From Thalassotalea sp. HSM 43 (GTDB taxonomy: Bacteria > Pseudomonadota > Gammaproteobacteria > Enterobacterales > Alteromonadaceae), in assembly GCF_004752005.1 (NCBI RefSeq), contig NZ_CP038493.1:2070302-2134301 (forward strand): a stretch of DNA of 64,000 nt, given 5' to 3'. A program made the translations under genes and the position numbers. The notes under the pieces were generated by a model. It saw only the letters and a program-made list of their open reading frames with translations. It had not been told where the DNA came from and made no database searches. This document shows, piece after piece, positions 24,389 through 62,877 of the stretch (position 1 is its first letter; the number at the start of each line of letters is the position of its first letter).

Positions 24389-24406
24389 TGTTATAAGAAT
24401 ATGTCA
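24389..24406. promoter_or_regulatory. Island operator, copy 1
   Basis: TGTTATA-AGAA-TATGTCA. It keeps the left half-site of the island consensus TGTTATA-N4-TATAACA, and the right half has two differences. It lies 37 bp before the start of the imidase/amidase operon. Its right half is identical to that of the site at 37013. Confidence 0.55.
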
Positions 24407-24443
24407 AATATCAAATTTGCCGATATTCATGGTGGTACTATAA

Positions 24444-25115
24444 ATGGAAACGACGACAAAAACAGCAAAAGAAATCTATTTGGAAATAAAAGCCAACCCT
24501 GCTCGTAAGAAGTTTGGTTTTGGTAATAAAGCCGTACTTGTTAACATCGATCCGCAAAAGGCGTATACCTGTGTTGATGAGTTTAAAACCGCATATGAAA
24601 CCGACCCAAATCAGTTGCATTATGTTAATAAACTGGCGGAAGAATTTCGTCGTCTAGGTTGGCCCGTGGTCTGGACGCATGTTGCTTATATGGACTCTGG
24701 TGAAGATGCAGGTATTTGGGGCACTCGCACCAACACTGAGGATTCGCTGCAAAACATAAAGTTTGATTCTCGTCGCAGTGAGTTTGATGATCGCTTGAAT
24801 ATTGATAAAGACAAAGATGTCATCTATTTGAAGAAGATGCCATCGGCATTTTTCGAAACGCAACTGCAGTCTTTATTGGTTTGGCATCAGGTTGATACCG
24901 TGATTCTAACGGGCGGTTCAACGTCTGGTTGTATCCGTGCCACAGCTGTTGATAGCCTATCTCGAGGTTACCGAACTATCGTGCCGGAGCAATGTGTTGC
25001 TGACAAACACGAAAGCTTCCATTACGCTAACCTAACTGACTTATTACTTAAATATGCTGATGTTGAAGAGGTTGATGACGTATTAACCTGGTTGGCATCT
25101 CAACAGCAAGGCTAG
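24444..25115 (+). CDS. Cysteine hydrolase of the isochorismatase family, maleamate-amidase-like
   Basis: A 223-residue amidohydrolase. The catalytic triad is visible as Asp36 (VNIDPQKAY), Lys130/131 (YLKKMPSAFF) and Cys163 (GGSTSGCIRATAVDSL). Relatives include N-carbamoylsarcosine amidase and the maleamate amidohydrolase NicF, which release ammonia from an amide. An operon with two cyclic-imidase-like genes fits amide cleavage after imide ring opening, giving a substituted maleate. A second, separate copy of the family is at 44665. Confidence 0.8.
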   Translation: METTTKTAKEIYLEIKANPARKKFGFGNKAVLVNIDPQKAYTCVDEFKTAYETDPNQLHYVNKLAEEFRRLGWPVVWTHVAYMDSGEDAGIWGTRTNTEDSLQNIKFDSRRSEFDDRLNIDKDKDVIYLKKMPSAFFETQLQSLLVWHQVDTVILTGGSTSGCIRATAVDSLSRGYRTIVPEQCVADKHESFHYANLTDLLLKYADVEEVDDVLTWLASQQQG

Positions 25116-25123
25116 GAGCAGCG

Positions 25124-26095
25124 ATGAAGCCGAACCCAGGATATTATGATTATTGGCCTTATGAAGGTAGGCCAAAAATTACGTGGCCTAATGGTGCTAA
25201 GATTGCCTTTTGGGTGGCACCTAATATTGAGTTTTATGAGTTAAATCCGCCAATCAACCCCCATCGCGCTGCATGGCCGCAACCTAACCCTGCGGTTGCT
25301 GGTTACTCTATTCGTGATTACGGTAACCGTGTTGGCCATGTGCGACAAATGAAGCTATTGGAAAAATACGGCATCCGCGGTTCGATTTCGTTATCAACTG
25401 CGTTGTGTGACCATCACCCCGAAATCATTGAGATGTGTAAAGAACGTGATTGGGAATTTTTCTCGCACGGTATTTACAACACCCGCTACACCTATGGCAT
25501 GAGCGAACAACAAGAACGCGACATGATCAAAGACTCGATGGAAACCATACACAAGCATACCGGTCAACAATGTGCCGGTTATTTGGCACCAGCGCTGTCT
25601 CATTCTGATAACACCATCGACTTATTTGCTGAAGTTGGTACCGAGCTGTTTGGTGATGAGGGCGGTATATACACCTGTGATTTATTTCACGATGATCAAC
25701 CAACGCCGATTCATACCCGCAGTGGTAAGCGTTTTGTCTCTGTCCCGTATTCATTAGAAATGAACGACACCATTGCCTTTGTCGTCAACAAGATTGAACC
25801 ACGCCGTTATGGGCAGATGCTTAAAGATAATTTTGACCGCTTATACGCAGAAGGTGCGGAATCAGGCACCGTGATGTGTATCCCAACCCACAACTACCAA
25901 ATCAGTTGCCCGCATCGGATAAAGGCGTTTGAAGAGGCGCTTGAATACATTACTTCACATGATGATGTTTGGTTGGCAACAGGCAGAGAAATTGCCGAGT
26001 ATTATCGCGAGCATTATTTTGAGTTGGCCAAGCAAGATATCGATGCTCGTATTGCTGGCCTTAGGCACTCTGTGAAATCTGCGGGAGAGCGATAA
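25124..26095 (+). CDS. Polysaccharide-deacetylase-fold hydrolase, PuuE/cyclic-imidase type (1)
   Basis: A 323-residue cytoplasmic protein without signal peptide. It has the NodB fold as found in allantoinase PuuE and in bacterial cyclic imide hydrolase: YSIRDYGNRVGHVRQMKLLEKYGIRGS, WEFFSHGIYN (a metal His region), GYLAPALSHSDNT and THNYQISCPHRIKAFE. A cyclic imide such as an alkylmaleimide is a likely substrate, with the neighbouring amidase taking the product. It starts 8 bp after the amidase gene and overlaps the next gene by one base. Confidence 0.75.
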   Translation: MKPNPGYYDYWPYEGRPKITWPNGAKIAFWVAPNIEFYELNPPINPHRAAWPQPNPAVAGYSIRDYGNRVGHVRQMKLLEKYGIRGSISLSTALCDHHPEIIEMCKERDWEFFSHGIYNTRYTYGMSEQQERDMIKDSMETIHKHTGQQCAGYLAPALSHSDNTIDLFAEVGTELFGDEGGIYTCDLFHDDQPTPIHTRSGKRFVSVPYSLEMNDTIAFVVNKIEPRRYGQMLKDNFDRLYAEGAESGTVMCIPTHNYQISCPHRIKAFEEALEYITSHDDVWLATGREIAEYYREHYFELAKQDIDARIAGLRHSVKSAGER

Positions 26096-27018
26096 TGGCA
26101 TTAGATAAAGACTATTTACAATACCCTCAACGCAGCTACGGTATGGACCATGATCGTTATGACTGGAGTATGCTCAGTGAACGCAAAGCGATTGAATGGC
26201 CACAAGGTAAAAATTTAGCGGTTTGGGTCAATGTTGGCCTGCAGCATTTTCCATTAGACCAAAAGGGTGTCCCGTTTAAAGTACCAGGTGGCATGACCAT
26301 GCCCTATCCTGATTTACGTCATTACAGCTTACGTGATTACGGTAACCGCGTTGGTATTTATCGTTTGCTCAAAGCGTTTGATGCGTACAACATTAAACCG
26401 ACGTTTGCGATGAACGCTGAATTGGCGCAAAACAATCCCTATTTGTTAGAAACCATCTGTGAACATGGTGATGAAATCATTTGTCATGGTTGGAATATGG
26501 ACAGCTTGCATTATGGTGGTCAAGATAAGAGCGCTGAAGCTGAATTGGTGGAAAAGTCGCTTAGCACGTTGCGTGAACTGAGTGGTCAAGCGATACGAGG
26601 TTGGTTATCACCGGCGAAAAATCAAAGTGAGAATACCCCTGAATTGCTGCACGCAAACGGTGTTGAATATCATTGTGATTGGGTTAACGATGATATGCCG
26701 TATCGATTTAAAACCGCCAACGGCGATTTATGGTCAATGCCATTATCAACGGAGCTTAGTGACCAATTTATCTTGGTCAATAATCTTCACTCGGAAGATT
26801 CATGGTTAGAACAAATCATCGACTCCACCAATATGCTGACCCGAGAGGCTAACCAGCAAGGTGGTCGTATTTTATCGATTCAAATCCATCCATGGTTAAT
26901 GGGCCAACCACATCGTATCGCTAAATTAGAGGCGTTATTGCAAAAGCTTACCCGTCGAGAAGATGTATGGTTTGCTCATGCCGGCGATATTCTTAATCAG
27001 TATATCGAACAGCAATAA
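26095..27018 (+). CDS. Polysaccharide-deacetylase-fold hydrolase, PuuE/cyclic-imidase type (2)
   Basis: A 307-residue paralog of the preceding gene: YSLRDYGNRVGIYRLLKAFD, DEIICHGWNMD, GWLSPAKNQSENTPEL and IQIHPWLMGQPHRIAKLE align with it. Two diverged copies side by side suggest either a heteromer or enzymes for two different imides, as would arise from the non-identical rings of a tetrapyrrole. Translation is coupled through TAATG. The operon ends in a 48-bp palindrome. Confidence 0.75.
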   Translation: MALDKDYLQYPQRSYGMDHDRYDWSMLSERKAIEWPQGKNLAVWVNVGLQHFPLDQKGVPFKVPGGMTMPYPDLRHYSLRDYGNRVGIYRLLKAFDAYNIKPTFAMNAELAQNNPYLLETICEHGDEIICHGWNMDSLHYGGQDKSAEAELVEKSLSTLRELSGQAIRGWLSPAKNQSENTPELLHANGVEYHCDWVNDDMPYRFKTANGDLWSMPLSTELSDQFILVNNLHSEDSWLEQIIDSTNMLTREANQQGGRILSIQIHPWLMGQPHRIAKLEALLQKLTRREDVWFAHAGDILNQYIEQQ

Positions 27019-27025
27019 CAAAAAC

Positions 27026-27515: not shown

Positions 27516-27623
27516 CTGCGGGCTCCATAGCGTATTTTGATATTTTTACGTTGTTGTTATAACAATAGATCATTAAGGTGCTAATTTCTTGATCTTATTA
27601 ACGATAACCTCAAATTTTATCGC

Positions 27624-27682: not shown

Positions 27683-28180
27683 TTAAACCAGTTCTGCTTT
27701 AACCAGTTGCGCATATCGGCCCGAATGAAAGACCAATGGATCTTTGTCTTCGTCAACATCAAAGTCTAATACTCTACCGACAATAATGATGTGATCACCA
27801 CCGTCGTATTGATGTTCAACTTCACATTGAAAACGAGCGCAGTACTCGGTTAAAAGTGGTACGTCAGCAATACCTGTTTCAATGCTGGCGGCAGCAAATT
27901 TGTCGGCGCCTTGGCGTGCAAATAAGTTGGATAATTCTTGCTGGTCATCAGCCAATACATGGACGGCAAAGTTTTTGCTGTCGGTAAAAGCGGGCAACGA
28001 ACGTGCACTCTTGTCGATGCTCCATAATATCAGCGGCGGGTTAAGCGATACTGAATTGAAGCTGCTGATGGTCATGCCAATTTGTTCATCACCGTGTTTG
28101 CTAGTGATGATGGTCACGCCGGTTGGAAACTTACCCAAGGCGTTGCGGAATAACTTAGGATCTATGCCGGGTTCAGTCAT
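27683..28180 (-). CDS. Flavin reductase (RutF/HpaC-like)
   Basis: A 165-residue FMN-binding split-barrel protein that would supply reduced flavin to a partner monooxygenase. The signature FPTGVTIITS, then MTISSFNSVSLNPPLILWSI, and HIIIVGRVLDFDV near the end are typical. AAGGAGCAGCC lies right before the ATG. It follows the beta-barrel protein gene by 16 bp. The acyl-CoA-dehydrogenase-like protein at 39672 is a plausible flavin-using partner in the island. Confidence 0.88.
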   Translation of the reverse strand: MTEPGIDPKLFRNALGKFPTGVTIITSKHGDEQIGMTISSFNSVSLNPPLILWSIDKSARSLPAFTDSKNFAVHVLADDQQELSNLFARQGADKFAAASIETGIADVPLLTEYCARFQCEVEHQYDGGDHIIIVGRVLDFDVDEDKDPLVFHSGRYAQLVKAELV

Positions 28181-29297: not shown

Positions 29298-30941
29298 TTA
29301 ACTAAGTAATGCTGGGCATTGTGTTTCCAGTTCTGCACGCTGACTGACTTGATCGCCGGTTAAGGCAAAACCGAGTAGCTGACCTTGAGCATCGACAAAG
29401 TGTGACTGCACACCTGTGTTGCTATTGATTTTGTCATGCCATTGACCATCGGCACCGGCTTGCGGTGGGTTGACCACCACAGGAAATAGCGTGGTTTTAA
29501 TCGCCACCGGCATGGCAGGATAGTGCACTTTAGTTGGTGTGCCAGTTAATGTCGCCGCTAAGGCTTTAACTTGTGCCATCAGCGGTGCAATGTAAAACAA
29601 CACATGGCCTTCAACTTCTGCACAGTCGCCTACGGCGTATATATCCGCAACTGACGTTTGCATATGGCGGTCGGTTTTGATGCCACGATTGACCTCTAAA
29701 CCGGTTGTTGTTGCTAGGCCTAAATTTGGACGCACACCGATGGCGCTTAAGACAATATCTGCGGCTATGCTATTGCCATTGCTCAGCGTGGCGAGCACAC
29801 CATTGTCTTGTTTGCTGATGGTTTCAACGACGGTGTCAAAATGGAATGCTGCGCCTGCGTCGGTCATGGCGTTAACCAGCGATTGTGACGCCTGCTCGGG
29901 TAACAAGTTAGCCAACGCGGTTGGCATAGCATCGACAACGTTTACCTCAAAGCCACTTTGCAGCAAATCATTGGCATACTCACAGCCTATTAATCCGGCG
30001 CCAATAATAAGCACCTTGCGTTTCGATTTGGCTAAGGTACGAAAACGATTGTAATCGAGTAAGTCATTTACCGAATACACATGGCTTAAGCCGTTACCGC
30101 TAACAGGTGCCTGAATGCAGCGCGCGCCTGTGGCAAACACCAGCTTGCCATAGTTATAGGCTTTGTCATCGTCACAGGTGATGGTTTTATTGTCACTGTC
30201 GATGGCACTGATGCGAGTATAAATATGAACATCTAAGTCGTATTGCTCGGCCATTTGCTCGGCACTGTGACTGGCTAAATCAGCGGCGGTTTTATTTTTG
30301 GCAAAACCAGTTGATAACATAGGCTTTGAATAAAATGCCCCGTCGTCGGCAGTAAAAACACTGATTGGCACTTGCTTGTCTGATTTGCGAATCTCTTTCG
30401 CTAAGTTATAACCAGCCAAACCTGAGCCAATAATAACCACCGGCTGACGACTGCTATCTACGCGCACAGGTGCACTTGGTTTTTCTGCTTTATATTCAGC
30501 CGGTTCTGAACTTTGCACCTTTGTTGCAACCTGTACTCGTTTGACTTCAACCATCTCAAAGTCAGCTTTGCCAACACCACATTCTGGACATAACCAATCG
30601 CTTGGTATGTCTTGCCATTTAGTTCCTGGGGCAATGCCGTCTTCAGGCCAGCCTTTAGATTCGTCATAAATCCAGGCACACACTTGGCATTCCCAGATAC
30701 TGTATTCTTTGCTTTCATTGGCATCGGCAGGTGGCGCTACCCTTGGTTCTGTTTCAACGGTTGATTGGCTGATAGCCACCATATCGAAATCATCTTTGCC
30801 AACGCCACACTCTGGGCATAACCAATCATTGGGAATGTCTTCCCAACGTGTGCCTGGTGCGATACCATCTTCTGGCCAACCTTTGGCTTCATCGTAAATC
30901 CAGGCGCATACCTGACATTCCCATACTTTATACTGCGTCAT
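29298..30941 (-). CDS. Double rubredoxin fused to FAD-dependent rubredoxin reductase
   Basis: A 547-residue electron-transfer protein carrying two rubredoxins and their reductase. Domain 1 has iron ligands Cys9, 12, 42, 45 and domain 2 Cys85, 88, 118, 121, each with WECQVCAWIYDE and DWLCPECGVGK. From about residue 167 follow GSGLAGYNLAKEI (FAD) and LIIGAGLIGCEYANDL (NADH). Rubredoxin reductases usually serve AlkB-type enzymes or oxygen/ROS reduction. Here the gene is divergent from the Rieske oxygenase with an operator at each promoter, so it is a likely electron donor to that oxygenase. The two rubredoxins are nearly identical, a recent duplication. Confidence 0.9.
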   Translation of the reverse strand: MTQYKVWECQVCAWIYDEAKGWPEDGIAPGTRWEDIPNDWLCPECGVGKDDFDMVAISQSTVETEPRVAPPADANESKEYSIWECQVCAWIYDESKGWPEDGIAPGTKWQDIPSDWLCPECGVGKADFEMVEVKRVQVATKVQSSEPAEYKAEKPSAPVRVDSSRQPVVIIGSGLAGYNLAKEIRKSDKQVPISVFTADDGAFYSKPMLSTGFAKNKTAADLASHSAEQMAEQYDLDVHIYTRISAIDSDNKTITCDDDKAYNYGKLVFATGARCIQAPVSGNGLSHVYSVNDLLDYNRFRTLAKSKRKVLIIGAGLIGCEYANDLLQSGFEVNVVDAMPTALANLLPEQASQSLVNAMTDAGAAFHFDTVVETISKQDNGVLATLSNGNSIAADIVLSAIGVRPNLGLATTTGLEVNRGIKTDRHMQTSVADIYAVGDCAEVEGHVLFYIAPLMAQVKALAATLTGTPTKVHYPAMPVAIKTTLFPVVVNPPQAGADGQWHDKINSNTGVQSHFVDAQGQLLGFALTGDQVSQRAELETQCPALLS

Positions 30942-31140: not shown

Positions 31141-31158
31141 TGCTATATCGGTATAACA
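31141..31158. promoter_or_regulatory. Island operator, copy 4
   Basis: TGCTATA-TCGG-TATAACA, with one mismatch in the left half. It lies 60 bp before the Rieske oxygenase start, so each of the two divergent genes has its own site. Confidence 0.6.
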
Positions 31159-31218: not shown

Positions 31219-32439
31219 ATGATAACTAATTTGTGGTACGTCGCTGAGTGGTCAGAGACAGTTTTGGATAAACCTGTAAAGGCCAAGGTACTAGGGCAAA
31301 ATCTGGTACTATTCAGAGACTTAGAAGGCAAAGTCAAATGTCTTGCCGATGTGTGCTTGCACCGTGGTGGTTCGTTATCCGGCGGTTGGGTTAACAAGAA
31401 ACGTGATTGTGTCGTTTGTCCTTATCATGGCTGGGAATACAACGGTAAAGGTAAGTGTGAGAAGATTCCATCAGAGGGTGATGACTTCAAAGTACCGCCT
31501 CGCTTTAAGGTCGATGCCTATCCTGTTGAAGAAAAATACGGCATGATTTGGGTGTTTATGGGCGATTTAGAAGAAGAGAAGCGCTACCCAATCCCACCAC
31601 TTCCTGAGTACGACAATCCTGAATGGCGCGGTCTTAAAACCGAATTTACTTGGAAAGCCGAAGCATCTCGCGTTGTTGAAAATGGCATTGATATCGCTCA
31701 TGCGTCATTTGTACATCCGGTGTTTGGTTATCCATCAACCGCTGAAGATAACTACATTGATCAAGTGGAGAAACACGAATGGTGGGCTCGTTCTACTAAC
31801 GTGATGTTCCCACCGCAATTAAAAGGTGGCTTTTTAGGCTGGCGCAATTTTATTCGTAAAGACAAACAAGAAACCCGTGTTCACCCCGAGTGGCACTTAC
31901 CGGGCATGATAGTGCGTATTAAAATTGATTTACGGGAAGGTTGGCACATTGTTATGTTCGATGCCAACACCCCGGTTGACGAACATACTACTCGCACATT
32001 TGCTTGGCAGTTTAGAACCTTCTTTAAGCAAAAGATGTTCGATAAAGGGTCAATGAAACGTTTGAAGACCATCTTGGATGAAGATGCGACTATCGTTGAA
32101 GATTCTAACCCGTATTACTTACCTGAAACCTTAGCTAATGAAGTATCGGTTAAGTCGGACAAGTTTATGAGTACCTTCAGAATGGCTCGACGTAAGCTTA
32201 TTGAAGAGAAAGGTTGGCAAATCGATATGGATGAACGCGATAAGCACAAAGGCAAAAAAGTGCTCACCATCGCCTCACCAGTGCGACGCGAGGCCGAGCA
32301 AGAAGGGCAAGGCTGGGTATTTGAAAAAATGCCAACGGTGGCGCCGATAAAAGGTGAGGGGGCGAAAAACGAATTTGAAAAAGACGTTGAACAGCTGACC
32401 ACCGATTCCGCAAACTCCAAAGACAGTTTTGTGGTGTAA
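31219..32439 (+). CDS. Rieske non-haem iron oxygenase (VanA/PaO type)
   Basis: A 406-residue oxygenase alpha subunit. The Rieske cluster ligands are Cys46 and His48 (CLHRGGSLSGG) and Cys67 and His70 (CPYHGW). The mononuclear iron motif is N155-x2-D158-x2-H161-x4-H166 (ENGIDIAHASFVH). Length and layout match single-component-type oxygenases such as vanillate demethylase, and the plant pheophorbide a oxygenase PaO has the same domain order. Given the NOL-like and RCCR-like genes nearby, a macrocyclic tetrapyrrole is my preferred substrate; an ordinary aromatic ring is the alternative. GGAG lies upstream of ATG 31219. Confidence 0.85.
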   Translation: MITNLWYVAEWSETVLDKPVKAKVLGQNLVLFRDLEGKVKCLADVCLHRGGSLSGGWVNKKRDCVVCPYHGWEYNGKGKCEKIPSEGDDFKVPPRFKVDAYPVEEKYGMIWVFMGDLEEEKRYPIPPLPEYDNPEWRGLKTEFTWKAEASRVVENGIDIAHASFVHPVFGYPSTAEDNYIDQVEKHEWWARSTNVMFPPQLKGGFLGWRNFIRKDKQETRVHPEWHLPGMIVRIKIDLREGWHIVMFDANTPVDEHTTRTFAWQFRTFFKQKMFDKGSMKRLKTILDEDATIVEDSNPYYLPETLANEVSVKSDKFMSTFRMARRKLIEEKGWQIDMDERDKHKGKKVLTIASPVRREAEQEGQGWVFEKMPTVAPIKGEGAKNEFEKDVEQLTTDSANSKDSFVV

Positions 32440-33245: not shown

Positions 33246-33842
33246 TTACTCTGTTAAGTGCTGCCAGATATTGGCTTTGAAAGGCTGTTCATGCACAGGA
33301 CCATCCACACCTCGCGGGTCGAGAGCGTGACGTTGCTCGCAACTTGGTGATAAACGCTGGCCATGCGCGGTTAACGTGCGGGTGGCTTGTCCATCACGAT
33401 ATAACACGGTATGGCGCACACGCTGACCTGTTCCGGTAAGAATGATAAAGTCAGGTTCCATATAGACATCGGTGGCTGCATTCAGTTGTCGCGCATTAAA
33501 AGTAATAATGCCAGGCCCACCGCTCATGCCAATGTTTTCATAGGCACCTTCGCCCAATGAGTCAAACACCAACACACCCTCTATTAACTTGGCGGTAAAG
33601 GTTTTTGCCGCCATTGGTCGACCGCGAAAATGCACGTTGGTAAGGGTTAAATGCTCACCATCAAAGTCAATGTAAACCAGATTATCAAATGGCGAAGAGC
33701 CCGGTGTGCCGCTGCCGGCGTGCGTATCGTCATCCAGTGGTGAGCCGTCAAGCTCAAAGCACTCGATAGAGTCATGCCAGATACCACGCATCTGCATGAG
33801 TGTGTGGCCGACGCTTCCTGGAACAAATTTAATTTCAGACAT
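33246..33842 (-). CDS. Beta-rich cytosolic protein, possibly calycin-like
   Basis: A 198-residue soluble protein with no signal peptide or helix-rich region. Features include LMQMRGIWHDSIECFELDG near the start, a central strand-rich part with FNARQL and DFIILTGTGQRVRHTVLYRDG, and a conserved-looking tail LTAHGQRLSPSCEQRHALDPRG. The N-terminal WxGxxxxxxxDG-like pattern resembles the 28197 protein, and both may be calycin barrels. It is divergent from the NOL-like reductase with a shared operator. Confidence 0.5.
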   Translation of the reverse strand: MSEIKFVPGSVGHTLMQMRGIWHDSIECFELDGSPLDDDTHAGSGTPGSSPFDNLVYIDFDGEHLTLTNVHFRGRPMAAKTFTAKLIEGVLVFDSLGEGAYENIGMSGGPGIITFNARQLNAATDVYMEPDFIILTGTGQRVRHTVLYRDGQATRTLTAHGQRLSPSCEQRHALDPRGVDGPVHEQPFKANIWQHLTE

Positions 33843-33874: not shown

Positions 33875-33892
33875 TGTATTAAAGATATAACA
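33875..33892. promoter_or_regulatory. Island operator, copy 5
   Basis: TGTATTA-AAGA-TATAACA. The right half is exact. It lies 32 bp before the 33246-33842 gene start and 80 bp before the SDR start. Confidence 0.55.
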
Positions 33893-53207: not shown

Positions 53208-53279
53208 AAGTGACTAACAGTATTGGCAAAGCCAACTTCAGCGGCAGCCAATTGCGGTGGCAAAGGAGTAAACGTCATC

Positions 53280-54479
53280 ATGAATAAACCACTTGCTGGC
53301 TTAAAAATTATCGATTTAACCCATATGTTATCGGGCCCTTATGGTTCGATGATTTTGTCTGATATGGGTGCAGATACCATTAAAGTAGAACCTTTGCAGG
53401 GTGAAGGTACGCGCAAGCTTCTGGCCTCGGATCCAAACAACTCGGTTGATGGCTTCGGTGCTTATTTTATTACTTTAAATCGTAATAAGCGCTCGGTCGC
53501 CATCGATTTAAAAAGCGATGAAGGTAAGCAGCTATTTTATAAATTAGTTGCTGAAGTTGATGTGGTTATCAATAACTTTGGCCCCGGAGTACCTGAGCGA
53601 CTCGGCATTGATTACGATACTCTAAGCCAACATAACCCGAGCATTATTACCTGCGCGGTAACCGGGTTTGGCTCTGATGGTCCAGGCCATAAGCGTCCGG
53701 CATTTGATCAGGTGGCACAAGCGTTTGGTGGCGGTATGTCGATTACCGGAACCGATCCAAAAACACCGATACGAGCCGGTATTCCTATTGGTGATTTGGG
53801 TGGTGGCATGTTTGCCGTTATGGGCATTTTAGGCGCTGTTGTAGAGCGTTATAAGTCAGGCAAAGGCCAGCATGTCGATATCTCTATGCTGGATTGTCAG
53901 GTGTCGATGCTGAACTATATGGCAACGATGCACATGATTTCTGGAGACGACCCATTCCCAATTGGCAATGGCCACTTTGTTCATGTGCCTTACAATTCTT
54001 ATCCGACCCAAGATGGTCACATAATTTTGGCGGTGATCACCGATAATTTTTGGCAAAACCTTAAGCCGGTGGTCAATGTCGCGCAATTTGATGATGCCAA
54101 ATACGACGGCCAACCAGGTCGCTTTGCCGATAAACAGTTTATCGACGCGACGTTAGCAGAAATCTTTGCGACCAACACCAACCGATATTGGTTAGACAAA
54201 TTGGAAGCGGCGCGCATCCCATGCGCACCGGTAAATAAATTCTCCGATGTGCTCAATGACTCCCAAGTGCGGCATCGTAAAATGGTGGTAGATATTTTTC
54301 ATCCCGATGGCAAAGCCACAAAGGCGCCGGGTAATCCGATCAAGATGTCGCGTACTAACGAAGACAGCTTCAGCGCTGCGCCGCATATTGGTCAACATAC
54401 CGATCAGGTACTTGGTGATTTATTGAATTTGTCAGCAGAAGAGATTGATAAACTGCGTGATCAAGGAATCGTTAAATAA
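53280..54479 (+). CDS. CaiB/BaiF family (class III) CoA-transferase
   Basis: A 399-residue CoA-transferase. The catalytic Asp172 lies in AGIPIGDLGGGMFA, and LSGPYGSMILSDMGADTIKVEP at the N-terminus is typical. ATG 53280 follows AAAGGAG; a TTG frame from 53223 is unlikely. It opens an operon with an HMG-CoA-lyase-like gene, leuCD-like genes and an MFS transporter. A class III transferase feeding a lyase is the design of citramalate/itaconate pathways: CoA activation of a (substituted) malate, then C-C cleavage. Confidence 0.88.
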   Translation: MNKPLAGLKIIDLTHMLSGPYGSMILSDMGADTIKVEPLQGEGTRKLLASDPNNSVDGFGAYFITLNRNKRSVAIDLKSDEGKQLFYKLVAEVDVVINNFGPGVPERLGIDYDTLSQHNPSIITCAVTGFGSDGPGHKRPAFDQVAQAFGGGMSITGTDPKTPIRAGIPIGDLGGGMFAVMGILGAVVERYKSGKGQHVDISMLDCQVSMLNYMATMHMISGDDPFPIGNGHFVHVPYNSYPTQDGHIILAVITDNFWQNLKPVVNVAQFDDAKYDGQPGRFADKQFIDATLAEIFATNTNRYWLDKLEAARIPCAPVNKFSDVLNDSQVRHRKMVVDIFHPDGKATKAPGNPIKMSRTNEDSFSAAPHIGQHTDQVLGDLLNLSAEEIDKLRDQGIVK

Positions 54480-55396
54480 TGGCGTCGAGGTTTGTACGTA
54501 TTACTGATGTGGGCCCCCGTGATGGCTTGCAAAATCAAGCGCAAATTTTAACGCCAGAACAGCGTAGCGAGATTATTGCCGATTTAGTTAATGCTGGCCT
54601 TCCGAGTATTGAGGTGGGCAGTTTTGTTTCGCCTAAAGCGGTACCGGCAATGGCTGGTATCAACGACATTTATCAACAACTGCCCGCTGGCAATTGTCAT
54701 TATCAGGCGCTTATTCCTAATGCCAAAGGTTATCAACTCGCAAAAGCGGCGGGGGCTAAAGCGGTGATGATGGTGGTATGTGCTACGGAAACCATGAACC
54801 AGAAAAACGTGCGCATGAGTGTCATGCAAGGCATGCAACAAGCGATGAGCATTATTGCCCAAGGTAAAGACGATAACATTGATGTTATTTGTTGCGTTGC
54901 GGTGTCTTGGCATTGCCCATTTGAAGGGAAAACCGAGCCGCAGCGTGTTATCGACATTGCCCGTGCTCTAGATGAAGCCGGCGCTAAAGAAATTATTCTC
55001 GCTGATACCATAGGGGCAGCGAATCCAGAGCAAGTTGCGACGCTTATCAAGCAAGTAAGCCAAGTGGTAGATATCGATAAGTTAGCGTGTCATTTTCATG
55101 ATACACGGGCGATGGGGATTGCCAATGTCTATGCGGCTCTGCAAGTGGGGGTGCGTAAATTTGATGCCTCACTAGGCGGCCTTGGAGGATGTCCGTTTGC
55201 GCCAGGCGCGACGGGTAATGTTGCCACTGAAGATGTGGTGATGATGCTCGAGCAAATGGGTTATCAAACAAATATTGATCTGCAGAAACTGATGGCGCTG
55301 AGCGATAAAGTTGGCCTTTGGGTTGAACAACAAATCGGTGGCCGAGCCGATGCTTGGCGCAAGTTGCAGTTAGCAAAAGGCAACGCGCTTATTTAA
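54479..55396 (+). CDS. HMG-CoA-lyase-family aldol lyase
   Basis: A 305-residue TIM-barrel lyase with TDVGPRDGLQNQ (metal Asp and catalytic Arg), the metal site CHFHDT and the loop Cys in GLGGCPFAPGATGNVATEDV, all as in 3-hydroxy-3-methylglutaryl-CoA lyase. It overlaps the CoA-transferase gene by one base. Beside a malate-type hydratase it may cleave an alkylmalyl- or citramalyl-CoA to an acyl-CoA and a 2-oxoacid instead of HMG-CoA; leucine breakdown partners (liu genes) are absent. Confidence 0.85.
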   Translation: MASRFVRITDVGPRDGLQNQAQILTPEQRSEIIADLVNAGLPSIEVGSFVSPKAVPAMAGINDIYQQLPAGNCHYQALIPNAKGYQLAKAAGAKAVMMVVCATETMNQKNVRMSVMQGMQQAMSIIAQGKDDNIDVICCVAVSWHCPFEGKTEPQRVIDIARALDEAGAKEIILADTIGAANPEQVATLIKQVSQVVDIDKLACHFHDTRAMGIANVYAALQVGVRKFDASLGGLGGCPFAPGATGNVATEDVVMMLEQMGYQTNIDLQKLMALSDKVGLWVEQQIGGRADAWRKLQLAKGNALI

Positions 55397-55417: not shown

Positions 55418-56878
55418 GTGACAGGTAAAACGCTTTACGATAAATTGTGGGAAATGCATTTGGTCGATATTGATGACGATGGCAACGGCCTGATTTATAT
55501 CGATCGTCATATCATTCATGAAATCACCTCGCCACAGGCATTCGACGGCTTGCGCCAATATCAACGCGATGTATGGCGAGTGGATAGTATTTTAGCGACA
55601 CCGGATCACCAAGTGCCTACCCAAGACAGACACTTGGGGCTAAACGGCTTTAGCGATGCCATTGCCAAGCAACAAGTTCAAACCCTCGACAGTAACTGTA
55701 AAAGCCATGGCATAAATCAATTTGCATTAGCAGATAAGCGTCAAGGTATCGTCCACGTGGTAGGCCCAGAGCAAGGCGCTACGCTGCCAGGAATGACCGT
55801 GGTATGCGGTGATTCACATTCGTCTACTCATGGTGCGTTTGCTGCCCTTGCCCAAGGCGTTGGTACATCTGAGGTTGAGCATGTGCTGGCAACGCAAACG
55901 CTGATGCAGAAAAAATGCAAAAATATGCGTGTCAATGTCAACGGTAAGTTAGCGTTTGGGGTGACCGCAAAAGACATGATTTTGTATATTATCGGCCAGC
56001 TTGGCAGTGCCGGTGGCAGCGGCTATGCGATTGAATACGCAGGCAGTGCGGTACAGGACTTATCGATGGAAGGGCGCTTAACTTTATGTAATATGACCAT
56101 CGAAGCCGGTGCCCGCTCAGGCATGGTGGCGTTTGATGACGTTACCGCTAACTATCTGAAAGACAAACCTTTTGCGCCGCAAGGTGAGCAATGGCAGCAA
56201 GCATTGCGATTTTGGCAAACCTTACAATCTGATGACAATGCCAAATTTGACCAAGAACTCGATATTGATGCGAGCGATATTGTGCCGCAAGTCACTTGGG
56301 GTACCAAGCCGGATCAGGTGATTGCGGTCAATGCACCAATACCAGACGCTGGCGAAGGCAAAGATGCAGTACAGCAACATGAATGGCAAACAGCACAACA
56401 CTATATGGGCGTGACGTCAGGGCAGTCACTAGAACAGTTGGCAATTGATCAAGTGTTTATTGGCAGTTGCACCAATGGCCGAATTGAAGATATACGACAA
56501 GTCGCCAAGGTATTAAAAGGTCGCAAGATTGCAAGCTCAATAACTCGTGCCATGGTGGTGCCAGGTTCAGGCTTAGTTAAAGAGCAAGCCGAACGAGAAG
56601 GCCTTGATCAAATCATTATTGCATCTGGATTTGAATGGCGTTTCGCCGGTTGCTCTATGTGCAATGCCATGAACCCAGATAAGCTTGAACCAGGCGAGCG
56701 CTGCGCCTCTACCTCGAATCGAAATTTTGAAGGTCGACAAGGTCAAGGAGGGCGCACACATTTGGTGTCACCGGCTATGGCTGCCGCTGCTGCAATTTAC
56801 GGTCACTTTGTTGATGTGCGCAATATCTCACTTGCCGATCAACAAAATTCCACTACCAAGCAAGAGGTTATCGCCTGA
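55418..56878 (+). CDS. Aconitase-family large subunit, LeuC-like hydratase
   Basis: A 486-residue 4Fe-4S hydro-lyase subunit. [43 protein letters not shown] and [29 protein letters not shown] give the cluster cysteines and substrate loop of isopropylmalate isomerase. It is about 20 residues longer than E. coli LeuC and starts at GTG 55418. No leuA or leuB is near. In this catabolic operon a citraconate- or dialkylmaleate-hydratase role is favoured, as in DmdA of dimethylmaleate hydratase, but a biosynthetic leuC cannot be excluded. Confidence 0.85.
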
Positions 56879-57516
56879 TGCAAGCTTTTAAAACGCATAC
56901 CGGTATTGTCGCCGCTATCGACCGAGCCAACGTTGATACCGATGCAATAATGCCTAAACAATACCTAAAATGCATCAGCAAAACTGGTTATGGAGATTGG
57001 GCGTTTGATGATTGGCGTTATCTTGATCACGGCGATGTAGATATAGATGTATCAACGCGGCGCTTAAACCCTGATTTTGAATTAAACCAGAGTAAGTTTT
57101 TAGCGGCCAGTATTTTACTTGGCGGTGAAAACTTTGGCTGCGGCAGTTCTCGCGAACATGCGGTTTGGGGCATCCGTGATATGGGCTTTAAAGTGATCAT
57201 TGCGCAATCATTTGCCGATATATTCTTTAATAACTGTTTTAACAATGGTGTGTTAGCCATTACCTTAGAAAAGCCAGTCATGGATAGATTATTTGCGTTA
57301 ACCAAACAAGCTAAAAGCGTGTTGATGGAAGTCGACTTAGAGCATAAGCAATTACGTTTTAATCACAAGCTGATTCATTTTTGTATAGAACCTAGTAGAC
57401 GCTTTAAGTTGTTGAATGGCCTTGATAATATTGCATTGACCTTACAGCAGGCTGACAACATAAAGGCGTTTGAACAACGCCATAAGCAGCGTCACCCTTA
57501 CTTTTTTAATCGTTAG
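56878..57516 (+). CDS. Aconitase-family small subunit, LeuD-like
   Basis: A 212-residue swivel subunit: DAIMPKQYLKCISKTGYGDWAFDDWRYLD, NFGCGSSREHAVWGIRDMGFKVIIAQSFADIFFNN. It overlaps the large-subunit gene by one base (TGATG), as expected for a stoichiometric complex. The residues KCISKTGYGDW in the substrate loop differ from E. coli LeuD (QKVTRTGFGAH), which may reflect a different substrate. It should act with the preceding protein. Confidence 0.85.
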   Translation: MQAFKTHTGIVAAIDRANVDTDAIMPKQYLKCISKTGYGDWAFDDWRYLDHGDVDIDVSTRRLNPDFELNQSKFLAASILLGGENFGCGSSREHAVWGIRDMGFKVIIAQSFADIFFNNCFNNGVLAITLEKPVMDRLFALTKQAKSVLMEVDLEHKQLRFNHKLIHFCIEPSRRFKLLNGLDNIALTLQQADNIKAFEQRHKQRHPYFFNR

Positions 57517-60292: not shown

Positions 60293-61150
60293 TTATTTGT
60301 ACTTTTCTGCTTGCGCCAACATATCGCCAGCCCCCAGTAAATCGTTTATCTGCTGCAGATCCCATAGTGGTTGTTGATAACTTTGAGTATCACCGGTTTG
60401 TTGAATGTGGCTCAGCACATGTTCGGCTTTAGGAATAAAACCATTAAGCAGAGCAATAGGGTACAAGGCGATTTTATAATTTAGCGATTGCATCATATCC
60501 GCGTTATCGATTGGGCTGTTGCCACCTTCGACTAAGTTATGCACTAATGGCACTTTATCACCGAACTCTTGACCGATTATCTGCATTTGTTCATAACTTT
60601 GCGGCGCTTCAACAAACAAAATATCAGCACCTGCGTCAATGTACTGCGCCGCTCTGTGCATGGCATCATCAAAACCATTAACGGCAAGCGCATCGGTTCT
60701 GGCAACAAGTAATGTGTCATCACTGGCTCTGGCATCAACAAAGGCTTTTATTTTGCCCACCATTTCGCTCGTTGCCACCACGTCTTTGCCTTGCATATGG
60801 CCACAACGTTTTGGCATCACCTGATCTTCCATTTGCATCGCATTGGCACCGGCTGTTTCTAACATCTTTACCGTACGTTGCGTATTGATGGCGTTGCCAA
60901 AACCCGTATCGATGTCGACTATCAAAGGTAAGTCATTATATTCTCTGATCGCACTGATGGTATCGGTCACTTCCTTGATGGTGACCAAGCCGATATCGGC
61001 AACACCAAAGCGTGAAAATGCAATACCAGCGCCAGAGACAAAACCAACATCAAAGCCTGCATTTTTAACCAGTCGACATGAAAGACCATCAAATACACCG
61101 GGCGCTTTAATAACACCCGGTTGTTGTAACCGTTGTTTTAAGGTTGCCAT
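60293..61150 (-). CDS. Isocitrate lyase/PEP mutase-superfamily lyase, dialkylmalate-lyase-like
   Basis: A 285-residue lyase: IVDIDTGFGN (Mg site, Asp79/81), MQMEDQVMPKRCGHMQGK with the catalytic Cys116 in the KRCGH signature of C-C lyases (2-methylisocitrate lyase, 2,3-dimethylmalate lyase), and LLVARTDALAV. KRCGH separates these lyases from phosphonopyruvate enzymes. It is not next to prpC/prpD, so 2-methylisocitrate is less likely. With a LeuCD-type hydratase and maleate isomerases it fits cleavage of 2,3-dialkylmalate to a 2-oxoacid and a carboxylic acid. It follows the 61160 gene by 9 bp. Confidence 0.8.
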   Translation of the reverse strand: MATLKQRLQQPGVIKAPGVFDGLSCRLVKNAGFDVGFVSGAGIAFSRFGVADIGLVTIKEVTDTISAIREYNDLPLIVDIDTGFGNAINTQRTVKMLETAGANAMQMEDQVMPKRCGHMQGKDVVATSEMVGKIKAFVDARASDDTLLVARTDALAVNGFDDAMHRAAQYIDAGADILFVEAPQSYEQMQIIGQEFGDKVPLVHNLVEGGNSPIDNADMMQSLNYKIALYPIALLNGFIPKAEHVLSHIQQTGDTQSYQQPLWDLQQINDLLGAGDMLAQAEKYK

Positions 61151-61159: not shown

Positions 61160-61936
61160 CTATTGTGGGATTGAGGTGTGCTCTTCGAGCAATGAGCCGA
61201 AGCCATAGATTTTATCCGGAATACCATTTGAGCGCAGTGCATGCCAAAACGTTAGCGCGTTAATGGCCAATACTGGCTTGCCTAATTCTTTTTCAAGTTG
61301 TGCTGCCAGCTCGACGAAATATAAATTGGTACCGGCTTGTAAGATCAAATCAACATCATCTCCATCAACGTCTTTTACCAGTTGACGGGTTTTGCCAAAG
61401 CTTTCATGGGCAATTTCTACCGGACCTGGCGAACTATGACCAGCAATACGCACCACATCATAGCCAATGTCACCTAAAAATTTGACAACCATGTTATCGC
61501 CTACCGGCATATAGGGCGTTACCACACCAATGCGTTTAACCCCGGGATAGCACTTTAGCGCGTCCATGATCGCCTGTGCACCAAAGGTAATTTGACAATG
61601 TCCTTCTTGTTTGGCGATATCATTATATTTGGCAAATTCACGATCCGAACGTTCTTTGCCGTCCCAAAAGGTCTCGGCAGAATAGCCAAAAATGACGTGA
61701 TCAGGACGACAGGTTAGGGCATCACGTAAGCCCTGTGCGGTGGCATCGCCTATTGCTTTAACCATGCCAACAAACTCGTCTTCATTGGTTACCTTGAATG
61801 CAGGAATAACACAGCCACGTGTTGCTAATACCACGCCTTCCGGTTTCATTTTGTTGTATTCCACCTCGACTGCGGTATTCGTGCTTGGCACCAACAGAGC
61901 AAATTTTTTGCGATAACCATAATAATCTAAAGACAT
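61160..61936 (-). CDS. Asp/Glu-racemase-fold protein, maleate isomerase-like, no catalytic Cys (2)
   Basis: A 258-residue paralog of the 51163 protein: LLVPSTNTAVEVEY, GYSAETFWDG, GVVTPYMPVGDNMVVKFLGDIGYDV and TNLYFVEL align. Neither catalytic cysteine is present: Ser86 stands at the first site and Ala201 (LQAGTNL) at the second. Racemisation or isomerisation by the usual thiol mechanism is therefore excluded. It may carry out another reaction or be a partner of the 51163 protein. It is first in a two-gene unit with the lyase. Confidence 0.75.
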   Translation of the reverse strand: MSLDYYGYRKKFALLVPSTNTAVEVEYNKMKPEGVVLATRGCVIPAFKVTNEDEFVGMVKAIGDATAQGLRDALTCRPDHVIFGYSAETFWDGKERSDREFAKYNDIAKQEGHCQITFGAQAIMDALKCYPGVKRIGVVTPYMPVGDNMVVKFLGDIGYDVVRIAGHSSPGPVEIAHESFGKTRQLVKDVDGDDVDLILQAGTNLYFVELAAQLEKELGKPVLAINALTFWHALRSNGIPDKIYGFGSLLEEHTSIPQ

Positions 61937-61986
61937 GATATTTTTCCTTTTTCAGCCAAGTCTGATTGCAACTCTTGGATTATATT

Positions 61987-62004
61987 TGTTATAAAGATAT
62001 AACA
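61987..62004. promoter_or_regulatory. Island operator, copy 8
   Basis: TGTTATA-AAGA-TATAACA, exact in both halves. It lies 50 bp before the 61936 start and upstream of the divergent SDR. Confidence 0.65.
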
Positions 62005-62127
62005 TTAATGTAATATATTCAGTCGATAAAATAAAGGCTATTGCGGTTAGGCGAACTGGCAAATGGCAACCAAGCATCAAAAGCGGCTGAGCAAGTGAAA
62101 ATTCAACAACGGGATAGTGGCGTGGCT

Positions 62128-62162
62128 AGTGAAATAGGTAGTGAAATAGATAGTGAAATAGA
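62128..62162 (+). repeat. Three tandem copies of a GTGAAATAG unit
   Basis: TAGTGAAATAG occurs three times with 12-bp spacing, just before the SDR start. In the longer reading frame it encodes SEIGSEIDSEIE. Confidence 0.6.
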
Positions 62163-62169
62163 AAATGGC

Positions 62170-62877
62170 ATGGAAAGTAAAATCGCCTTAGTAACAGGCG
62201 CTAATCGCGGTATTGGTTTAGCGATTGCAAGCAAGTTAGCAGCGCTTGGTATGACGGTGGTGATGACCGGCCGTGATCAACAAAAACTGCAGCAAGAAAC
62301 ACGAAAATTGCAGGCGCAAGGATTGACGGTTGTCGCTAAAGTGCTTGATGTCACCGATGCTAAACAGTGTTCTGATTTGATCAGCGCTATTGCTGAGCAA
62401 TATGGTCGCTTGGACGTGCTGATTAATAATGCCGGTATTGCCATTGATCAGTGGGTGCCCGGTTGTGAGGTGGCGATGGAGTTGGTAGAACAAACTATTG
62501 CGACCAATGTCTATGGGCCATTGGCATTAACCCAGGCGGCGCTGACGGTGATGAAACGCCAACAACATGGTCGTATTGTTAATATATCCAGTCAATTGGC
62601 CAGCTTTTCAGCCATGACCATGGGCATGACATTGGCCTATCGCATGTCAAAAACAGCATTAAATTCAATGACTAAGATTCTATCGATGGAATTGGGGGAA
62701 TACCCGGACATAAAAATTAATGCCGTTGCCATGGCGTGGGTCAAAACCGATTTGGGCGGACCTGAGGCACCATTGTTGCCAAAGCAAGCTGCCGAAACAC
62801 CGGTGTGGTTGGCCACCTTAGAACACGATGGCCCAACAGGGGAATTGTTTCAAGACAGCAAGCCTTTCGCTTGGTAA
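62170..62877 (+). CDS. Short-chain dehydrogenase, carbonyl-reductase-like
   Basis: A 235-residue SDR from ATG 62170: TGANRGIG cofactor loop, LINNAG, ISS (Ser) and YRMSK (Tyr, Lys), and a proline-rich specificity loop GGPEAPLLPKQAAE. The frame stays open to TTG 62041, which would add 43 residues including a repeat-coded acidic stretch; no ribosome site clearly decides. Divergent from the lyase unit with an operator between them, so probably part of the island. The substrate is unknown. Confidence 0.8.
   Translation: MESKIALVTGANRGIGLAIASKLAALGMTVVMTGRDQQKLQQETRKLQAQGLTVVAKVLDVTDAKQCSDLISAIAEQYGRLDVLINNAGIAIDQWVPGCEVAMELVEQTIATNVYGPLALTQAALTVMKRQQHGRIVNISSQLASFSAMTMGMTLAYRMSKTALNSMTKILSMELGEYPDIKINAVAMAWVKTDLGGPEAPLLPKQAAETPVWLATLEHDGPTGELFQDSKPFAW

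What the first reader, a model, noticed from the sequence alone, without database searches (positions are those of the whole stretch)
24389..62877. Candidate bacterial chlorophyll/bilin (tetrapyrrole) catabolic island mirroring the plant PaO/phyllobilin route
Seen: an SDR with NYC1/NOL-type features (33973), a VanA/PaO-type Rieske oxygenase (31219) with a dedicated double-rubredoxin reductase (29298), an RCCR-family protein (38902), two beta-barrel possibly calycin proteins (28197, 33246) and one TonB receptor (46906). Known: in plants chlorophyll b reductase, PaO and RCCR act in this order to open and reduce the macrocycle. Inference: their co-location with operators and with a maleimide-degrading gene set points to complete use of a tetrapyrrole as nutrient by a heterotroph. 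I know of no described bacterial operon of this kind.
Basis: partly seen in the sequence, partly recalled or inferred. Interest (0 to 1): 0.95.

Follow-up and report, generated by a model that had tools for sequence, protein, structure and literature searches.

The report
Bacterial gene island for eating tetrapyrroles
A marine bacterium and scattered relatives carry a shared 51-kilobase set of genes that looks like a route for taking apart chlorophyll- or bile-pigment-like molecules and feeding on the pieces, which would explain how some bacteria consume some of the commonest pigments on Earth.

Summary
The genes named are present at the stated coordinates. The central claim survives: the 38902 protein has the RCCR/bilin-reductase fold (AlphaFold pLDDT 90.9; its first 41 solved-structure matches are all RCCR or bilin reductases). 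Two RCCR-family genes (PF06405, above Pfam cut-off) lie at and just past the window's end. The island recurs, rearranged, in seven other gammaproteobacteria of at least six genera. All six relative genomes that could be searched whole have one close Rieske copy and a close 38902 homologue. An 18-bp palindromic operator joins the second reductase module, the Rieske gene and the imide/dicarboxylate genes. Two labels fail or stay untested: the Rieske protein has no PaO domain, and the SDR is generic by family models. Best reading: an aerobic catabolic island in which tetrapyrroles are oxidised, reduced, cut to maleimide-type rings, hydrolysed and cleaved into central metabolism. That the substrate is chlorophyll, and that the Rieske enzyme opens the macrocycle, is inferred, not shown.

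The parts
24389..24406 (.). operator copy (TGTTATA-N4-TATAACA, 2 mismatches) before the imide-hydrolysis genes
24444..25115 (+). isochorismatase-family hydrolase (candidate half-amidase)
   Evidence: PF00857 3e-29; 83-89% identical in Paraglaciecola, Rheinheimera, Thalassomonas
25124..26095 (+). PuuE-like polysaccharide-deacetylase-fold hydrolase (candidate cyclic imidase)
   Evidence: PF01522; allantoinase PuuE model 5e-35, below its cut-off; solved PuuE 4e-25
26095..27018 (+). second polysaccharide-deacetylase-fold hydrolase
   Evidence: PF01522
27078..27515 (-). DUF2141 protein, function unknown, behind the 27555 operator copy
   Evidence: 37-66% identical homologues in relatives
27555..27572 (.). 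operator copy, 2 mismatches, upstream of the DUF2141 gene
27683..28180 (-). flavin reductase (candidate partner of the 39672 flavin enzyme)
   Evidence: PF01613
28197..29177 (-). conserved protein with no family match, possibly beta-barrel (GxW motif)
29298..30941 (-). rubredoxin reductase with two rubredoxin domains
   Evidence: PF00301 x2, PF07992, PF18113
30983..31000 (.). operator copy, perfect, between the divergent reductase and Rieske genes
31141..31158 (.). operator copy, 1 mismatch, same promoter region
31219..32439 (+). Rieske oxygenase, VanA_C type, both metal-site motifs present; candidate ring-opening enzyme
   Evidence: one match at E<=1e-60 in each of 6 of 6 relatives
33246..33842 (-). 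conserved protein with no family match; structure attempt failed
33875..33892 (.). operator copy, 2 mismatches
33973..34776 (+). SDR_A, generic short-chain dehydrogenase; 41% identical to SDR_B of the second module
34892..36229 (-). MFS transporter A, paralogue (33%) of MFS_B past the window
37190..38851 (+). two-domain CN-hydrolase (amidase/nitrilase), 41% identical to the one past the window
38902..39636 (+). RCCR/FDBR-fold reductase
39672..40943 (+). acyl-CoA-dehydrogenase-fold flavin enzyme (FadE16/DszC-like models, all below cut-off), candidate monooxygenase
40967..43869 (+). two aldehyde dehydrogenases (40967-42433, 42433-43869)
43870..44661 (+). alpha/beta hydrolase
44665..45255 (+). 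second isochorismatase-family hydrolase
   Evidence: PF00857 1e-37
45287..46504 (+). FAD aromatic-hydroxylase-type monooxygenase
   Evidence: PF01494
46900..49551 (+). TonB-dependent receptor
51163..51939 (+). Amd1, maleate isomerase / arylmalonate decarboxylase superfamily; of two motif sites only the QCGTNL cysteine is present
53190..53207 (.). operator copy, perfect
53223..55396 (+). family III CoA-transferase (53223-54479) and HMG-CoA-lyase-like enzyme (54479-55396)
55418..57516 (+). LeuC/LeuD-type hydro-lyase, large and small subunits (candidate alkylmaleate hydratase)
60293..61150 (-). methylisocitrate lyase / 2,3-dimethylmalate lyase family lyase
61160..61936 (-). Amd2, same superfamily as Amd1, alanine at the QCGTNL cysteine position; 79-86% identical in the seven relatives
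61987..62004 (.). operator copy, perfect
62041..62877 (+). SDR_C
62956..63702 (-). alpha/beta hydrolase with N-terminal hydrophobic segment
63665..64000 (-). RCCR1 (part inside the window), PF06405 RCC reductase above cut-off; the gene runs on to 507 bases past the window's end. Further parts lie past the window: MFS_B, RCCR2 (L003:2157-2978), SDR_B (L003:2988-3785), epimerase-type SDR, CN-hydrolase B, two operator copies and the GntR/UTRA regulator (L003:9319-10086)

Best explanation
This is a patchily distributed, probably horizontally shared island of about 51 kb, tied together by one operator, for aerobic breakdown of tetrapyrroles to central metabolites. Proposed working: a TonB receptor and MFS carriers bring in a tetrapyrrole or its ring-opened product. 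A VanA_C-type Rieske oxygenase, probably fed by the neighbouring double-rubredoxin reductase, oxidises it (most likely opening the macrocycle or oxidising the opened chain). Three RCCR/bilin-reductase-fold enzymes reduce the linear tetrapyrrole at different bonds. SDRs adjust side groups. Flavin monooxygenases, aldehyde dehydrogenases and two-domain amidases cut the chain to single rings of maleimide type. PuuE-like imidases and isochorismatase-type amidases hydrolyse these to alkylmaleates and ammonia. A LeuCD-type hydratase, a dimethylmalate-lyase-type enzyme and a CoA-transferase/HMG-lyase pair cleave those to central metabolites. Shown: the families, the RCCR/FDBR fold, conservation, linkage, shared operator sequence. 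Inferred: every reaction, the order, the substrate, and that the operator is bound. My estimates: bilin-type tetrapyrrole catabolism about 0.8; Rieske opens the macrocycle about 0.45; chlorophyll-derived substrate about 0.45.
For: Two PF06405 genes over cut-off, E 6e-14 and 2e-13 over most of the model; a profile of the two hits Arabidopsis RCCR structures at 6e-16 and plastid bilin reductases at 4e-4 and 0.002. 38902: the first 41 fold hits are RCCR or FDBR; of the 45 with E<=0.001 the other two are chains of a Chlamydomonas FtsHi motor complex, and 43 are RCCR/FDBR; profile-profile E 3.9e-14 with the RCCRs. An aspartate aligned with that of plant RCCR, GtPebB and tomato phytochromobilin synthase is kept in 16 of 16 RCCR rows and 9 of 9 38902-type rows. 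Linkage: Rieske relative at E<=1e-80 in 3 of 369 class genomes, all three among the 4 of 369 with PF06405 (two of the three are one genus); in 6 of 6 relatives one Rieske match (81-87%) and a best 38902 match at 59-69%. In three relatives an RCCR gene lies directly beside the Rieske gene. Synteny 15-43 of 54 against 0-1 of 25 controls. Operator: all three perfect genome copies and 9 of 26 with <=2 mismatches lie in 1.27% of the genome; 33 copies in the relatives' fetched stretches against a mean of 3.5 and maximum of 15 for 104 permuted patterns. No canonical heme oxygenase (PF01126) match in the genome; the control search rang in 3 of 14 genomes.
Against: No activity is known for any member. 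The Rieske protein has no PaO domain. No Mg-dechelatase was found, though that search lacked a positive control. At two motif sites Amd1 has M and C, Amd2 Y and A, where, from memory, maleate isomerase has two cysteines, so their step is unclear. The hydratase scores over the cut-off as LeuC. RCCR2 homologues also occur outside such an island, in G659. The operator word was found in the island itself, so its enrichment in the own genome is partly circular; over the whole genome <=2-mismatch copies (26) are fewer than for the reversed control pattern (40), and two of the ten relative stretches have none. The imidase and dicarboxylate steps rest on family resemblance only. Base composition gives no sign of recent transfer.
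Confidence: 0.75

Rival explanations
1. The island takes up and degrades ready-made linear bilins (phycobilins, bile pigments, phyllobilins) and never opens a macrocycle; the Rieske enzyme hydroxylates a side group, as plant TIC55 does on phyllobilins (recalled).
For: Known RCCR/FDBR enzymes act on linear tetrapyrroles; the 38902 protein also resembles phytobilin reductases; no PaO domain, no Mg-dechelatase match (uncontrolled) and no canonical heme oxygenase in the genome; Rieske is VanA_C type.
Against: The Rieske gene is as tightly linked as the reductases and sits beside an RCCR gene in three relatives, as expected of a PaO/RCCR-like pair; three different reductases and two paralogous modules exceed what one bilin would seem to need.
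Confidence: 0.4
2. The RCCR/FDBR-fold enzymes here have been recruited to a non-tetrapyrrole N-heterocycle (for example a pyrrolic natural product or an imide-containing metabolite), and the island degrades that.
For: Sequence distance from plant enzymes is large (RCCR1 and RCCR2 hit the RCCR profile at 52 and 51 bits); generic SDRs, oxygenases and amidases fit many N-heterocycles.
Against: Several separate groups of the fold serve the islands (38902 type and RCCR2 as fully supported clades, RCCR1 and RCCR3 with weaker support), best matched in fold and sequence by enzymes of linear tetrapyrroles, with the shared aspartate kept in all rows.
Confidence: 0.15
3. The island makes or modifies a bilin pigment (biosynthesis) rather than consuming one.
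For: FDBRs of some heterotrophic bacteria are active bilin-making enzymes found beside bilin-binding globins (PMC10151467, passages read).
Against: No canonical heme oxygenase match in the genome, with positive controls; the same operator word stands before imidase, CoA-transferase and lyase-block genes; a TonB receptor and two aldehyde dehydrogenases are catabolic in character.
Confidence: 0.05

Closest known systems
Plant PaO/phyllobilin route of chlorophyll breakdown (recalled; RCCR structures 2zxk, 3agb)
   Same: An oxygenase of Rieske type linked to RCCR-family reductases; RCCR family met by Pfam cut-off.
   Different: Rieske enzyme is VanA_C, not PaO; a rubredoxin reductase instead of plant ferredoxin supply; three reductases; followed by a ring-to-dicarboxylate gene set that I do not know from plants; one shared bacterial operator word.
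Bilin reductases of heterotrophic bacteria (pre-PcyA; PMC10151467, passages read)
   Same: Same superfamily, non-photosynthetic hosts.
   Different: Of those, pre-1 and pre-3 lie in clusters that typically hold heme oxygenase, an Fe-S protein, V4R and globin genes, pre-2 in a three-gene cluster with a globin; here no canonical heme oxygenase in the genome, and degradative neighbours.
Nicotinate fermentation via dimethylmaleate (recalled)
   Same: Aconitase-family hydratase plus dimethylmalate-lyase-family lyase on an alkylated maleate.
   Different: Hydratase here is LeuCD-like; setting is aerobic and, by inference, fed by imides.
Cyclic imide degradation: imidase plus half-amidase (recalled)
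   Same: PuuE-like hydrolase beside an isochorismatase-type amidase.
   Different: Substrate here inferred to be alkylmaleimides.
Riboflavin/lumichrome catabolic cluster (PMC12746152, passages read)
   Same: Catabolic cluster using a Rieske enzyme and hydrolases on an N-heterocycle pigment.
   Different: Uses P450, xanthine oxidase and catechol dioxygenase; RCCR/FDBR enzymes are not mentioned in the passages shown.

Membership tests
RCCR family (PF06405), genes RCCR1 and RCCR2 | match over Pfam's curated cut-off across the domain | tested here: met
   52.2 and 50.9 bits against 24.9
RCCR/FDBR superfamily, protein 38902 | alpha/beta fold shared by RCCR and FDBR | tested here: met
   pLDDT 90.9; first 41 PDB fold hits all RCCR or FDBR, E 6.5e-12 to 1.3e-6
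RCCR family proper (PF06405), protein 38902 | match over Pfam cut-off | tested here: not met
   the window protein matches only PF05996, 19.3 bits against a cut-off of 31; of 9 orthologues 4 match PF06405 and 5 PF05996 at E up to 0.01, best E 7e-4 and 1e-4
RCCR/FDBR enzymes | reduces a linear tetrapyrrole | not testable with these tools
   needs assay
PaO/CAO/TIC55 Rieske oxygenases | PF08417 C-terminal domain | tested here: not met
   not among the families; 0 matches in own genome, control rings in 2 of 14 genomes, over the cut-off in 1
Rieske oxygenases, VanA_C type | Rieske domain, VanA_C domain, CxH..CxxH and DxxHx4H motifs | tested here: met
NYC1/NOL chlorophyll b reductases | groups with NYC1/NOL in a tree | not tested
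   no plant sequences at hand; Pfam and NCBIfam give generic SDRs only, all NCBIfam matches shown below cut-off
Calycin (28197, 33246) | calycin barrel in structure | tested here: inconclusive
   33246 model failed, pLDDT 34.1; 28197 not modelled
Maleate isomerase (Amd1, Amd2) | two catalytic cysteines (recalled) | tested here: not met
   Amd1 has M and C, Amd2 Y and A at the two motif sites; residue roles and site matching are from memory
Isopropylmalate dehydratase LeuC | NCBIfam cut-off | tested here: met
   762.6 bits against 510; substrate may still differ

The most novel reading that the evidence does not exclude
Heterotrophic gammaproteobacteria carry a transferable, operator-controlled pathway that mineralises chlorophyll: a non-PaO Rieske oxygenase driven by rubredoxins opens the chlorin macrocycle, RCCR-family enzymes reduce the product, and the rings end as alkylmaleimides that are hydrolysed and cleaved to central metabolites and ammonia.
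Probability: 0.4. Interest if true: 0.95.

Novelty: new variant of a known kind. Interest (0 to 1): 0.85.

Why it matters
Very large amounts of chlorophyll and bilins are made and destroyed each year (recalled). In nine searches of open-access full texts (between 1 and 30 top rows listed in each) I saw no bacterial catabolic gene cluster for them; subscription papers and preprints were not covered. The island gives marker genes (the 31219-type Rieske enzyme, RCCR1/RCCR2, the 38902 type) that can be counted in genomes and metagenomes, and natural carriers in which growth on pigments can be tested directly. It would also show RCCR-family enzymes at work outside photosynthetic organisms and a possible rubredoxin route of electrons into Rieske or bilin-reductase chemistry.

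Tried and rejected
Riboflavin/lumichrome catabolism was considered after PMC12746152 came up; its passages show a different enzyme set, so it was dropped.

Simple perfect-palindrome counting found no operator; a mismatch-tolerant word search against shuffled regions did (16 of the 27 intergenic stretches). A scan of the joined 83.7 kb with up to 3 mismatches gave 16 places, 15 in the island region and 1 left of it; several of the 3-mismatch ones need not be real, and one lies inside a gene.

The calycin test of 33246 failed (pLDDT 34.1), and profile comparison of 33246 with 28197 gave only a short GxW stretch (probability 1.4%); no claim is made. A plasmid search for RCCR2 found nothing. No tRNA lies in the window, and GC of the island (0.453) is close to its flanks (0.425, 0.445, 0.443), so composition gives no sign of recent transfer; the argument for transfer is the patchy distribution and the rearranged blocks. 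The Mg-dechelatase search was uninformative for want of a positive control. Only the PF01126 kind of heme oxygenase was sought. No phylogeny against plant NYC1/NOL, PaO or RCCR sequences was made; the tree holds island and related bacterial proteins only, the program warns of long branches, RCCR1 (93/61) and RCCR3 (88/62) are weakly supported, and the two g305 RCCR1-type proteins do not join the other RCCR1 rows firmly. The alternation of RCCR1 and RCCR3 was read from fetched stretches, not from whole-genome searches.

Rows and genomes left out: L014's genome was not held and so not searched. The seven relatives were found through RCCR2, so they are biased towards islands with RCCR2, and the pattern scan missed the G537, G632 and G659 kinds. 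Alignment A6 leaves out Thalassomonas RCCR2 (L035), the RCCR1 pieces split at locus ends (L034/L035), the cut L041 RCCR2, a second copy of the Alkalimonas RCCR3 (L041) and L012's orphan homologue, while L013's was kept. One search had 20.8 kb only for Thalassotalea, about 10 kb each for G537 and G632, and for Thalassomonas, XY-R5 and Paraferrimonas missed stretches fetched later, so its counts for these are lower bounds; on the other side some of its hits are to paralogues. The motif control did not include L052 or L059-L063. SDR_B of the Alkalimonas MAG appears in two pieces, unexplained.

Full report
What is there. The window is bases 2070302-2134301 of a 4.01-Mb single-contig genome. Every ORF named in the finding is present. 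Pfam gives: 31219 Rieske + VanA_C; 29298 two rubredoxins, FAD/NAD reductase and rubredoxin-binding domain; 33973 short-chain dehydrogenase; 38902 a weak bilin-reductase match (E 0.0017 for the 38713 ORF); 46900 TonB receptor; isochorismatases at 24444 and 44665; polysaccharide-deacetylase-fold hydrolases at 25124 and 26095; a two-domain CN-hydrolase at 37190; two aldehyde dehydrogenases; an acyl-CoA-dehydrogenase-fold and an aromatic-hydroxylase-type flavin enzyme; two Amdase-family proteins; a CoA-transferase, an HMGL-like lyase, an aconitase-type pair and a PEP-mutase/ICL-type lyase.

The island runs past the window. A search of the genome with PF06405 found two RCC reductase genes over Pfam's cut-off, at and just past the window's end (52.2 and 50.9 bits against 24.9). 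RCCR1 spans 63665-64507 in window numbering; RCCR2 is L003:2157-2978. Past the end lies a second module with paralogues of the first: SDR_B 41% to 33973, CN-hydrolase 41% to 37190, MFS 33% to 34892; each module also holds RCCR/FDBR-fold genes. A GntR/UTRA regulator follows (L003:9319-10086). Conservation in the relatives stops after L003:11680, giving about 51 kb.

Is 38902 an RCCR/FDBR protein? By sequence alone it is borderline: of 9 orthologues, 5 match PF05996 and 4 match PF06405 at E up to 0.01, best E 1e-4 and 7e-4. Profile against profile, it joins the RCCR set with E 3.9e-14 and probability 98.2. Its AlphaFold model (pLDDT 90.9) finds RCCR first (2zxk, E 6.5e-12), and the first 41 hits are RCCR, phytochromobilin synthase, PebA, PebB, PcyA or PebS; of the 45 hits with E<=0.001 only two, chains of a Chlamydomonas FtsHi motor complex, are something else. 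The finding's own test is thus passed for the fold. In a tree of island and related bacterial proteins it is a fully supported clade apart from the RCCRs; RCCR2 is one too, while RCCR1 and a third group, RCCR3, are weakly supported.

Relatives. Within the order PF06405 was found in 1 of 295 genomes, this one, and the 38902 protein (E<=1e-5) likewise in 1 of 295; within the class PF06405 in 4 of 369; in a phylum sample in 1 of 398, this one. A scan of genome contigs with the two RCCRs returned seven loci: Thalassotalea mangrovi, Paraglaciecola hydrolytica, Thalassomonas sp. M1454, Rheinheimera sp., an Alkalimonas MAG, Alteromonadaceae XY-R5 and Paraferrimonas sedimenticola, at 71-87% identity. 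Around RCCR2 seven of seven have the epimerase-type SDR, the alpha/beta hydrolase, Amd2, the lyase, a glyoxalase-type (VOC) protein and the p235 protein, the last at 24-29% only in three; six of seven have MFS_B and six of seven SDR_B (in two pieces in Alkalimonas); four of seven have RCCR1. With longer stretches, 15 to 43 of 54 island-region proteins were found per relative against 0 or 1 of 25 flanking proteins (20.8 kb only for Thalassotalea; 7 of 54 on each of two 10-kb contigs of another family, G537 and G632; some hits are to paralogues). The order of blocks differs between genomes, so blocks have moved while staying together.

The Rieske enzyme belongs to the set. In 369 class genomes a Rieske relative at E<=1e-80 occurs in three, the own one, G537 and G632, all of them among the four with PF06405; two of the three are one genus, and the fourth PF06405 genome, G659, has RCCR2 homologues without the Rieske gene. 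In the six relatives held, each has exactly one match at E<=1e-60, 81-87% identical, and each has a 38902 homologue at 59-69% (two of the six have a further weak match there). In Alkalimonas, XY-R5 and Paraferrimonas a third RCCR gene lies directly beside the Rieske gene, divergent from it and in front of the rubredoxin reductase gene; in Alkalimonas it matches PF06405 at 72.7 bits. In the stretches fetched, those three have RCCR3 (69-70% alike) and no RCCR1, whereas Paraglaciecola, Thalassomonas, Rheinheimera, Thalassotalea and the two g305 contigs have RCCR1 and no RCCR3 (its two 33-35% RCCR3 rows in Paraglaciecola and Thalassomonas I take to be the RCCR2 gene seen again); this looks like one reductase standing in for the other. 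The gene pair recalls PaO and RCCR of plants, but the protein is not PaO: no PF08417 match or in the genome. Its nearest solved relatives by sequence are NdmB, SxtDIOX, SxtT and NdmA.

One regulon. A mismatch-tolerant word search in 16 island intergenic stretches found one shared 18-bp palindrome, TGTTATA-N4-TATAACA, above shuffled sets. Copies with up to 2 mismatches lie before the imide hydrolases (24389), the DUF2141 gene (27555), between the rubredoxin reductase and Rieske genes (30983, 31141), between 33246 and 33973 (33875), before the CoA-transferase (53190), between Amd2 and SDR_C (61987) and twice in the second module (68432, 68463 in window numbering). The 38902 operon has only a 3-mismatch copy upstream of 37190 (37013), and the TonB gene a 3-mismatch copy (46685). 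In the whole genome there are 26 places with up to 2 mismatches, 9 of them in the island, and all three perfect ones; binomial P 2e-11, partly circular because the word was found there. Independent of that, the relatives' stretches hold 33 copies against a mean of 3.5 and maximum of 15 for 104 permuted patterns, though L047 (XY-R5) and L011 (G632) hold none and Paraferrimonas' two are matched by 6 of 104 permutations. Several lie at corresponding promoters, including that of the GntR gene in Paraglaciecola, Thalassomonas and Rheinheimera. The GntR protein is my candidate reader of the site; binding is not shown.

Lower pathway. The 25124 protein is PuuE-like; with the isochorismatase-type amidase beside it this resembles imide hydrolysis followed by half-amide hydrolysis (recalled). 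The LeuCD-type pair acts, in LeuCD itself, on an alkylmaleate (recalled); the 60293 lyase matches methylisocitrate lyase (4e-50) and 2,3-dimethylmalate lyase (2e-44). Substituted maleimides are oxidation products of bilins and chlorophyll (recalled; the abstract start of PMC5997574 names methylvinylmaleimide from bilirubin oxidation, and the listing there shows 'maleimide' 10 and 'hematinic acid' 20 times in PMC12860425, a paper on chlorophyll-derived pigments). This is the link between the reductases and the dicarboxylate genes, and it is inference. Amd1 and Amd2 do not fit: the two motif sites read GMSAET/QCGTNL and GYSAET/QAGTNL, unlike the two-cysteine isomerase I recall.

Substrate. No PF01126 heme oxygenase match in the genome, with the control search ringing in 3 of 14 genomes, so the cell does not obviously make biliverdin by that route. 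A chlorin or porphyrin opened by the Rieske enzyme, or bilins taken up ready-made, both fit. Weak hints toward chlorophyll: an alpha/beta hydrolase with a sub-threshold chlorophyllase match (E 0.0062) next to RCCR1 in G632, and in Paraferrimonas a fusion of an alpha/beta hydrolase with a stretch that matches the 38902 protein at 25%. I hold chlorophyll at about 0.45.

Literature. Nine searches of open-access full texts listed, among the 1 to 30 rows shown in each, no bacterial tetrapyrrole catabolic cluster; I saw search listings and starts of abstracts, and passages of PMC10151467 and PMC12746152. Subscription papers and preprints are not covered.

Verdict.

Noticed in passing
L048:9505-11313 (Paraferrimonas, minus): 602-aa fusion of an alpha/beta hydrolase with a C-terminal stretch related (25%) to the 38902 reductase, away from the island.
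   Followed up: partly
L012:8782-9570 and L013:9678-10484 (G659): Two orphan RCCR2 homologues (53% and 48%) in a gammaproteobacterium with no other island gene nearby except a weak SDR match, so the family also has a life outside the island.
   Followed up: partly
L011:1292-2305 (G632): Alpha/beta hydrolase directly before RCCR1 with a sub-threshold chlorophyllase match (PF07224 E 0.0062).
   Followed up: partly
window 61160-61936: Amd2 is among the most conserved island proteins (79-86%) yet has alanine at the QCGTNL cysteine position kept in Amd1; its reaction is unexplained.
   Followed up: partly
L018:3349-4164, L060:13132-13899, L062:14968-15768: A third RCCR group (RCCR3) beside the Rieske gene in genomes whose fetched stretches lack RCCR1.
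   Followed up: partly
window 27078-27515: DUF2141 gene behind its own operator copy; its homologue lies next to the GntR gene in several relatives. Function unknown.
   Followed up: no
L003:13083-19938: Past the island: second TonB receptor, TPR/sulfotransferase-like protein, another CN-hydrolase and a GntR-aminotransferase-like gene, not conserved with the island.
   Followed up: no
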